Below are positions 10,439-12,278 of a DNA stretch of 38,169 nucleotides, piece by piece. The DNA is taken from the NCBI GenBank assembly GCA_003649085.1, contig QMQV01000003.1:1-38169 (forward strand). Direction: 5' to 3'. Made by a program: the position numbers and the translations under genes. Origin of the DNA: Thermoproteota archaeon (GTDB lineage Archaea > Thermoproteota > Methanomethylicia > Methanomethylicales > B66-G16). The first letter of the stretch is position 1. The number at the start of each line of letters is the position of its first letter. The notes beneath the pieces are model-generated. The model had not been told where the DNA came from, did no database searches, and saw only the letters and a list, made by a program, of their open reading frames with translations.

Positions 10439-12278
10439 TTGAGGGGGGTGGTAACAATTCCAGTCCGGCAGCCCATAGTCTGCGTGTTAGGGCACGTGGA
10501 TGTAGGAAAGACGCTTTTATTGGATAAGATCAGAGGCACTGCTGTTATGGCGAGAGAAGCTGGGGCCATGACCACGCCCCAGCTAGTTAGCTGGGGCGTG
10601 GTGGCAAACCCAGCATATAGGCGCTAGCTTTCTACCTCTTTCAACAATAGCCTCAATTTGTGCTCCTATCTTAAAGGGATTTAAGGCTCAGATATCACTT
10701 CCCGGAGTCCTAATCATAGATACTCCTGGTCATGCTGTTTTCTCTAACTTAAGGGTTAGAGGAGGATCTATAGCTGATATAGCCATATTAGTAATAGACA
10801 TATTGAAGGGGGTTGAGGAGCAAACAAAGGAGTGTATTGAAATTTTAAGGTCTAGAAAAACCCCCTTCGTAGTTGCAGCTAATAAAATTGACAGAATACC
10901 TGGTTGGAAGTCAATGGAGAACAAGCCATTTCTAGAATCATACGCTTCTCAAGACCCTGTTGTAAAACAGCGTTTTGATGAGCTATTGTATAGGCTTATT
11001 GGTGATTTAGCAAAATTCGGCTTCGCATCAGATAGGTTTGATCGCATAAGAGACTTTACACGAACCGTAGCCATCGTACCAACAAGTGCGCTTACGGGCG
11101 AGGGAATACCTGAGCTTTTAGCTGTTATATGCGGGCTTGTCCAACATTACCTAATGAAACGCTTAGCGATAACCGAAGGCCCTGGTAAAGGGGTAATTCT
11201 TGAAGTTAGAGAAGAGCCAGGGCTTGGCAGCACAATCGATGTCATACTATATGATGGTGTTATTAAGCAAGGAGACATCATAGTAGTAGGCGGCCTTGAA
11301 AAACCGATAGTAACTAAGGTAAGAGCATTGTTATTGCCTAAGCCTCTCCATGAAATCCGCGACCCAGAAGACCGCTTCTTAAATGTAGACAATGTTTCAG
11401 CAGCTGCTGGTGTTAAGATTGTAGCCCAAGATCTCGAAAAAGCACTCGCTGGTGCTCCTGTGAGAGTTGTTGGCGAGGATGAGAAGCTAGAGGATATAAT
11501 AAAGGAGGTTTCTGAAGAGGTTAAGGGCATAAGGTTTACTAAAGACATAGATGGTGTTGTCGTGAAAACTGATACATTGGGTTCTCTAGAAGCTTTGGTA
11601 AGCTATCTTAAAAAAGCCAACATACCAGTTAGAGTTGCCGATGTAGGCCCTGTAAGCAAACGCGACGTTTTTGAGGCATCTATTTCTAAGAAATCAGCTG
11701 AACAATATGGTGTTGTGTTGGCTTTCAACGTAAAGGTTTTGCCTGAAGCCGAGAAAGAGGCTTTAGACCATGGCGTAGTAATTTTCACTAACAACATAAT
11801 ATACCGGTTAATTGAAGAATATCAGCAGTGGCTTAATAAGTTAAAGGAGGAAGAGCAGAGACGCATAATATCGCAACTAATACACCCTGGAAAAATAAGA
11901 ATACTTCCCGGTTATGTATTTAGGCGAAGCGACCCAGCGATAGTGGGCATTGAAGTATTGGCAGGGAAGATAAAGCCTGGTTATCCACTTATGAAAACAT
12001 CTGGTGCGCACGTGGGCAACATCATGCAAATTCAGGAATCAGGGAAACCCATAAGCGAGGCAACAACTGGAATGAAGGTTGCTATCTCCATAAGAGGCGA
12101 TGTGATGGTTGGTAGGCAGATAAAGGAAGGTGAGGTTCTCTATGTCGCTGTCCCCGAAAAACATTTAGAGACCTTAGCAAAATTCAAGGACCTTTTACCC
12201 CCTGACGAAGTTTCCCTTCTAGAAGAGCTTAAGCTAAGAGTTTTTAAGGAACACTTTCTTGATTTAGCGCAAAGATAA
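10439..12278 (+). CDS. infB: translation initiation factor aIF5B/IF2, gene interrupted by a 37-nt BHB intron
   Basis: GTPase promoting ribosomal subunit joining. Exon 1 (to 10570) encodes RQPIVCVLGHVDVGKT (G1) up to REAGAM. Unspliced, the frame hits TAG at 10625-10627 after 62 codons. Exon 2 (from 10608) continues TQHIGAS, LPGVLIIDTPGHA (G3), AANKID (G4) and the later barrel and alpha/beta domains. Spliced, the product is 600 residues, the normal archaeal length. The insert falls beside the switch I threonine. G1 has Val where bacterial IF2 has His (GHVDVGKT). The start is unclear: TTG 10439 lies against a GAGGGGGGTG sequence (10441-10450), which would fit the ATT at 10457 (MPVRQPI) better. 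Downstream are S6e and aIF2-gamma. Confidence 0.93.
10571..10607 (+). other. archaeal bulge-helix-bulge (BHB) mRNA intron within infB
   Basis: The bases from 10559 to 10614 form a complete hBHBh' structure. The outer helix is GCTGGG (10559-10564) with CCCAGC (10609-10614). The central 4-bp helix is GCCA (10565-10568) with TGGC (10602-10605). The 3-nt bulges are TGA (10569-10571) and AAA (10606-10608). The inner helix is 13 perfect base pairs (10572-10584 with 10589-10601) closed by the loop AGTT. Cutting after the second base of each bulge removes 10571-10607 and yields GCC ATG ACC CAG CAT ATA, that is AMTQHI, restoring the reading frame. Cutting after the first base instead gives AITQHI. The family knowledge is that tRNA splicing endonuclease cuts such motifs, as in crenarchaeal cbf5 mRNA. 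Confidence 0.9.

What the first reader, a model, noticed from the sequence alone, without database searches (positions are those of the whole stretch)
10559..10614. A spliced BHB intron in the mRNA of translation initiation factor aIF5B
The infB frame is broken by 37 nt (1 more than a multiple of 3). Insert and flanks fold without a mismatch into the canonical hBHBh' motif: GCTGGG/CCCAGC outer helix, TGA bulge, GCCA/TGGC central helix, AAA bulge, and a 13-bp inner stem with loop AGTT. Excising 37 nt at the bulges restores both the reading frame and the conserved TQHIGAS switch I sequence, giving a normal 600-residue factor. Chance cannot plausibly supply all of these at once. Protein-gene introns cut by tRNA splicing endonuclease are well known in crenarchaeal cbf5; I know of none described in aIF5B, though I could not search.
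Basis: partly seen in the sequence, partly recalled or inferred. Interest (0 to 1): 0.95.

Follow-up and report, generated by a model that had tools for sequence, protein, structure and literature searches.

The report
Conserved intron in archaeal aIF5B mRNA
A 37-letter stretch breaks the gene for a conserved protein-making factor in an archaeon; inserts sit at exactly the same place in 27 related genomes, and each is very likely an intron, predicted to be cut out of the messenger RNA by the cell's tRNA-splicing machinery, an interruption so far reported in very few archaeal protein genes.

Summary
In the window's aIF5B (infB) gene, 37 nt (10571-10607) break the frame and fold with their flanks into a canonical bulge-helix-bulge (BHB); removing them restores MTQHIGAS and a 597-residue aIF5B.

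The decisive evidence is comparative. Of 38 scorable genomes of one archaeal class (by record titles Methanomethylicia), 27 have an insert at the identical nucleotide, 22-33 nt long; 11 have none. Over the 28 inserts (window included), 433 of 448 BHB positions pair, against 27-42% in slid controls, with changes on both sides of the inner stem. All 28 unspliced readings stop within 18 codons. The 27 genomes show one aIF5B each. EndA is found in 39 of 40 class genomes, RtcB in 38. A pattern search found none in 358 phylum genomes outside the class.

Best reading: a pre-mRNA intron removed by EndA and RtcB, like the cbf5 intron, which 16 class genomes also appear to carry. Splicing is inferred; no RNA data were available. 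No report for aIF5B was found in nine searches of open-licence papers. New member of a known kind.

The parts
10448..10570 (+). exon 1 of aIF5B (41 codons from GTG; P-loop GHVDVGKT to AREAGAM); start codon is a choice, TTG 10439 is also in frame
   Evidence: translation; PRK04004 match
10559..10564 (+). outer helix, 5' strand (exon 1), GCTGGG
   Evidence: fold; outer helix kept in relatives
10565..10568 (+). central 4-bp helix, 5' strand (exon 1), GCCA
   Evidence: codons GGG GCC in 28 of 28
10569..10571 (+). 5' bulge TGA, predicted cut after the second base
   Evidence: 3-nt bulge geometry in the anchored rows
10571..10607 (+). predicted 37-nt BHB intron (inner stem 10572-10584 / 10589-10601, loop 10585-10588)
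   Evidence: frame repair, fold, same site in 27 of 38 class genomes
10602..10605 (+). central helix, 3' strand (intron), TGGC
   Evidence: c1 pair G-C 13, G-U 15 in 28 rows
10606..10608 (+). 3' bulge AAA, predicted cut after the second base
   Evidence: last two intron bases AA 20, AG 6, AC 2
10609..10614 (+). outer helix, 3' strand (exon 2), CCCAGC
10608..12278 (+). exon 2 of aIF5B (TQHIGAS to stop)
   Evidence: translation; called in databases as a 491-aa truncated ORF, P0001

Best explanation
The 37-nt insert is very likely a pre-mRNA intron of the archaeal bulge-helix-bulge type: its borders are predicted to fold into a BHB that the tRNA-splicing endonuclease (EndA) would cut in both 3-nt bulges, after which the RtcB ligase would join the exons so that a normal aIF5B can be made. 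Shown by sequence here: position, predicted fold, frame repair, inserts at the same nucleotide in 27 related genomes, pairing kept while letters change, a stop in every unspliced reading, EndA in 39 and RtcB in 38 of 40 class genomes. Inferred: transcription across the site, cutting, joining. A single ancestral gain with later losses is the history I favour, but one gain plus two losses and two gains plus one loss cost the same on the tree.
For: Frame repair and full aIF5B match. Canonical BHB, z -6.8, the only strict one in the window. Same nucleotide in 27 of 38 scorable class genomes. 433 of 448 anchored positions pair; slid controls 123-187 of 448; inner stem 157 of 168 against a block-shuffle mean of 91 and maximum of 117 in 2000. 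18 of 28 inserts are multiples of three and all 18 hold an in-frame stop; 28 of 28 unspliced readings stop after 1-18 codons. GGG GCC at the border in 28 of 28, although GGG is 23% of Gly and GCC 28% of Ala codons in exon 2. One aIF5B match in each of the 27 genomes. EndA in 39 of 40, two copies in 29; RtcB in 38 of 40. The known cbf5 intron site is broken in 16 of 40 class genomes.
Against: No RNA or peptide evidence. The rows are related, so pairing counts are not independent events. 15 of 448 positions do not pair, worst in G037 (three) and G038 (two). G020 bears the intron but shows neither EndA nor RtcB, and G037 bears it but shows no RtcB; G020 is a 0.7-Mb draft, G037 about 1.0 Mb, so incompleteness is likely but not shown. 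The window's own genome is not held, so its EndA and RtcB could not be checked.
Confidence: 0.93

Rival explanations
1. Ribosomal bypassing: the ribosome hops over the insert, as described for T4 gene 60 (recalled), and the RNA is not cut.
For: A stable hairpin in the gap and a frame that resumes cleanly.
Against: Bypassing needs matching take-off and landing codons (recalled); the last intron codon equals the take-off ATG in 0 of 28, and the first three bases repeat after the gap in only 9 of 28. What is conserved is the BHB with 3-nt bulges, which bypassing does not need.
Confidence: 0.02
2. Sequencing or assembly error, or a dead gene.
For: The window's recJ does have a small frame break, so errors or decay occur on this contig.
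Against: Inserts at the same nucleotide in 27 other genomes from separate assemblies; only one aIF5B match in each; exon 2 intact and similar to solved aIF5B chains.
Confidence: 0.01
3. EndA cuts the BHB but the exons are not joined in most transcripts; the site serves to shut aIF5B down or to make a small circular RNA, with little full-length protein from this gene.
For: EndA cutting without a coding role is known: BHB processing in the 5' UTR of HVO_1309 and in pre-rRNA (PMC7714728, passages).
Against: The gene is the only aIF5B match found in the 27 genomes, and both exons are preserved as coding sequence.
Confidence: 0.03
4. Two independent gains of the intron at the same site in two groups of the class (a question of history, compatible with the best explanation).
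For: The tree needs three changes either way, and an intronless group of seven (G003, G007-G012) lies beside the G034-G042 group.
Against: Identical nucleotide and identical GGGGCCATG border in both groups. The tree is of one gene, quick method, with several weakly supported forks.
Confidence: 0.3

Closest known systems
cbf5 pre-mRNA intron of Desulfurococcales and Sulfolobales (PMC2738675: abstract, Background, Results read)
   Same: Short intron in a coding sequence, BHB-type border, predicted EndA cuts, interrupts a catalytic motif, gained once and lost in some lineages, length range 16-44 there and 22-37 here.
   Different: Another gene, another site, another archaeal class; here the motif is mostly the canonical BHB with 3-nt bulges, while most cbf5 introns of that paper have an unconventional BHB.
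Archaeal tRNA introns with canonical BHB
   Same: Same motif geometry and predicted cut sites; introns were called in 12 of 12 long tRNA genes fetched from three relatives, picked for their length.
   Different: Sits in an mRNA, without a tRNA body.
BHB site in the 5' UTR of HVO_1309, Haloferax volcanii (PMC7714728, passages)
   Same: mRNA substrate of the splicing endonuclease.
   Different: Outside the coding sequence; here the reading frame depends on removal.
Putative 12-bp introns in protein genes of an archaeal virus (mentioned in PMC2738675)
   Same: Short insert in an archaeal coding sequence.
   Different: Multiple of three and not shown to be spliced; here the inserts cannot be read through.

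Membership tests
Archaeal BHB (EndA-type) intron | Two 3-nt bulges separated by a 4-bp helix at the exon-intron borders | tested here: met
   Fold; in 28 anchored rows the four central pairs form in all but one (G039, one A-C)
Archaeal BHB (EndA-type) intron | Removal at the predicted bulge positions restores the gene product | tested here: met
   Window; relatives: all 27 give AM-TQHIGAS when joined
Archaeal BHB (EndA-type) intron | Splicing endonuclease and ligase genes in the organism | tested here: inconclusive
   Not testable for the window. Class: EndA 39 of 40, RtcB 38 of 40; G020 lacks both, G037 lacks RtcB
Archaeal BHB (EndA-type) intron | Cutting by EndA and exon joining in RNA | not testable with these tools
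   No RNA data at hand
cbf5 intron family | Site at the catalytic Asp codon of cbf5 | tested here: not met
   This intron is in aIF5B. A cbf5 break at GTL-D-PK exists in 16 of 40 class genomes, separately
Group I or group II intron | Ribozyme core | tested here: not met
   37 nt is too short for a ribozyme core (established knowledge); Rfam gathering scan of the window gave 0 matches
Intein or in-frame protein insert | Open reading through the insert | tested here: not met
   Stop within 1-18 codons in 28 of 28 unspliced readings

The most novel reading that the evidence does not exclude
An old mRNA intron, kept by selection in most of an archaeal class, places production of a core translation GTPase under the tRNA-splicing machinery: EndA/RtcB capacity, and so the load of tRNA maturation, gates how much aIF5B is made. 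Together with cbf5, these archaea would run a small multi-gene mRNA-splicing programme aimed at translation and RNA-modification genes.
Probability: 0.2. Interest if true: 0.92.

Novelty: new member of a known kind. Interest (0 to 1): 0.76.

Why it matters
A 2020 paper states that, besides the 5'UTR case it adds itself, the only additional BHB intron reported in archaea was the one in cbf5 mRNA (PMC7714728, passage). A second coding-sequence intron, in most sampled genomes of a class and in a core translation factor, would show that archaeal pre-mRNA splicing is more than a cbf5 oddity, give a second natural system for intron gain and loss, and explain truncated aIF5B entries (the stored protein for this window is a 491-aa tail). 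Since close relatives with and without the intron exist, the old question of why such introns persist becomes testable.

Tried and rejected
Exact 20-mer of the 5' border in viral contigs: one hit, with no other similarity to the window, taken as chance. Whole genome of the window: not held. Ribosomal hop, error or dead gene, intein, group I/II intron: see rivals and membership rows. A second strict BHB in the window: none. The split recJ (19107-20521) looked like a second intron; my reading is an extra AG in a short AG run, with no BHB seen, and 35 of 40 class genomes have a recJ match over the cut-off.

Insert outside the class: of the 80 aIF5B loci (a capped list: 259 relatives found, best 80 kept), 75 read straight through the site, 3 have the insert (L003, L007, L021, all in the class), 2 are cut by contig ends. 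A first, regex version of that count matched only 56 of 80 and was replaced. The pattern search over 398 phylum genomes (an even draw from a larger group) hit 26, all among the 40 class genomes, 0 of 358 outside; it demands GGNGCNATG and TGGYANAC and missed one known case (G039), so relaxed forms elsewhere are not excluded. A strict BHB scan over 381 kb of fetched loci gave 34 hits, 22 of them this intron (some loci overlap); the other 12 were not followed, and it missed introns with a mismatch, such as L095, L097 and L105. Four of the eight outgroup loci I tried were not parsed and were left out of the tree; G019, G027, G033 are not in the tree.

Papers: no aIF5B or infB intron turned up (open-licence PMC texts; listings only, save the passages cited). 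I recall a report of an RNA-seq-detected intron in an archaeal XPD/Rad3-like gene (Doose 2013); searches did not bring it up, so 'second gene' is not claimed as a strict count.

Full report
What is in the window. aIF5B lies between nucleoside-diphosphate kinase (9946-10395) upstream and ribosomal protein S6e and aIF2-gamma downstream. The frame that holds the P-loop GHVDVGKT runs to AREAGAM and then to a stop 18 codons later; the frame that holds TQHIGAS and the rest begins after 37 more nucleotides. Without 10571-10607 the product is 597 residues, 857 bits to the archaeal IF-2 equivalog PRK04004 and 679 bits to the solved chain 5fg3_A over residues 6-582. The borders fold as a canonical hBHBh' without a mismatch. 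A strict scan finds no second such motif in the window on either strand.

The comparative test. A scan of one genome per species with an alignment of exon-2 proteins gave 80 aIF5B loci, the best of 259. Of these, 75 read straight through the site, two are cut by contig ends, and three have an insert there: L003, L007, L021. They lie in G001, G002 and G034, all in one class of 40 held genomes. The tool names no class; record titles of members (Methanomethylicota, Methanomethyliaceae, Methanomethylicia) make me call it Methanomethylicia, ex-Verstraetearchaeota. 39 of the 40 have an aIF5B match; in 38 the site can be read (G033 has no match, G027 is cut by a contig end): 27 have an insert and 11 do not. 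The insert lies between the same two nucleotides each time. Lengths, window included: 22 (3), 25 (2), 27 (12), 29 (2), 30 (3), 31 (2), 33 (3), 37 (1).

Pairing. I anchored 6 outer, 4 central and 6 inner pairs on the splice sites, without an alignment, in the 28 rows (27 distinct introns; G017 and G018 are the same). 433 of 448 positions pair; sliding the 3' strands by 1 to 3 gives 123-187 of 448. The inner stem, free of conserved protein coding, pairs at 157 of 168, against a mean of 91 and a maximum of 117 when whole 3' strands are dealt out anew 2000 times; its columns change on both sides (i3 for example: G-C, C-G, A-T, T-A). The rows are related, so these are not independent events. The 15 failures: position i6 in G031, G032, G030, G002, G015, G020; i3 in G024 and G025; o3 in G042; o3 and i1 in G038; o3, i4, i6 in G037; c4 in G039.

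Coding logic. 18 of 28 inserts are multiples of three, yet all 18 hold an in-frame stop; in all 28 the unspliced reading ends 1-18 codons after the site. The Gly and Ala codons that form parts of the outer and central helices are GGG and GCC in 28 of 28, although GGG is 23% of Gly and GCC 28% of Ala codons in exon 2 of the same genes; the 11 intronless genes have GGA 7, GGG 2, GGC 1, GGT 1 for the Gly. Two intronless genes keep GGG GCC ATG (G029, G019), which looks like exact loss (inference). Each of the 27 intron-bearing genomes has one aIF5B match, so an unspliced gene would leave the cell without the factor, as far as the held genome shows.

Machinery. The endonuclease family PF01974 is found in 39 of 40 class genomes: two matches in 29, one in 10. 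In G034 one copy matches the chains 3p1z_B and 3ajv_B best (184 and 179 bits); the second matches archaeal endonucleases more weakly (best 99 bits). Two unlike copies suggest the (alpha-beta)2 type, which has a broad substrate range (PMC6379350, passages); subunit roles were not tested. RtcB is found in 38 of 40. Against the reading: G020 bears the intron but shows neither EndA nor RtcB, and G037 bears it but shows no RtcB and has the poorest BHB; G020 is a 0.7-Mb draft and G037 about 1.0 Mb, so missing sequence is the likely cause, not shown. Twelve long tRNA genes fetched from G001, G013 and G034, picked for length, were all called with introns.

A known mRNA intron in the same class. cbf5 is broken in 16 of 40 class genomes (15 as two frames, G038 with a stop) and whole in 20; the other four are cut or lack a full match. 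In 14 of 14 broken genes fetched (of 16) the border reads GGNACCCTAGAG, at GTL-D-PK; several of the single-sequence folds show the BHB (for example L142, L147, L149), others do not, and I did not count them. [quoted passage not shown] Nine genomes (G034-G042) have both breaks, seven (G003, G007-G012) only that of cbf5.

History. In a tree of 45 aIF5B rows (quick method, SH-aLRT only) the window groups with two database proteins, P0002 and P0003 (100), within a clade of 24 rows that also holds 18 intron-bearing class genomes and the intronless G014 and G029. P0002, P0003 and P0025 begin after the site, as gene callers would cut an intron-bearing gene; P0025 falls beside G013, whose gene has the insert. 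The intron label needs 3 changes (shuffle mean 11.9, 0 of 500 as low): one gain and two losses, or two gains and one loss. G019 (fragment, no intron) is not in the tree. Outside the class the pattern search hit 0 of 358 sampled phylum genomes; it misses relaxed motifs.

How it most likely works. The transcript folds the BHB, EndA cuts both bulges, RtcB joins GAM to TQHIGAS, and the 37-nt RNA is discarded or circularised. The cutting and joining are inferred from the motif and from established knowledge of archaeal tRNA splicing. The site lies in the switch I sequence of the GTPase (identified from recalled motif knowledge), so retention of the intron would give a short peptide. A regulatory use is speculation and is put forward only as the novel case.

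Known or new. By the tests open here it belongs with the BHB introns; it is not the cbf5 intron. PMC7714728 (passages) names cbf5 as the only other mRNA case besides its own 5'UTR example. Nine searches of open-licence papers returned no aIF5B or infB intron; subscription papers and preprints were not covered. PMC13149111, PMC4090602 and PMC6379350 were seen as passages, PMC12397907 as one passage of its reference list, all others as search listings.

Noticed in passing
L142-L155 (cbf5 of 14 class genomes): cbf5 is broken at the catalytic GTL-D-PK site in 16 of 40 class genomes (14 fetched), fitting the known cbf5 intron outside Desulfurococcales and Sulfolobales.
   Followed up: partly
window 19107-20521 (+): RecJ-family gene in two frames; reads as an extra AG in a short AG run near 19993-20000, no BHB seen; 35 of 40 class genomes have a recJ match over the cut-off.
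   Followed up: yes
G017:C87, G021:C90, G029:C11, G030:C79 (rtcB): RtcB matches split into residues 1-50 and about 41-426 within one open frame of 897-968 aa: a large in-frame insert, probably an intein, in the ligase that would join these exons.
   Followed up: no
L102 (G029), L119 (G019): Intronless aIF5B genes that keep the GGG GCC ATG codons of the intron-bearing ones, as if the intron had been removed exactly.
   Followed up: partly
G037, G020: Intron-bearing genomes with machinery not found: G037 has no RtcB match and one EndA-type match, G020 (0.7 Mb) has neither. Incomplete genomes or another route.
   Followed up: no
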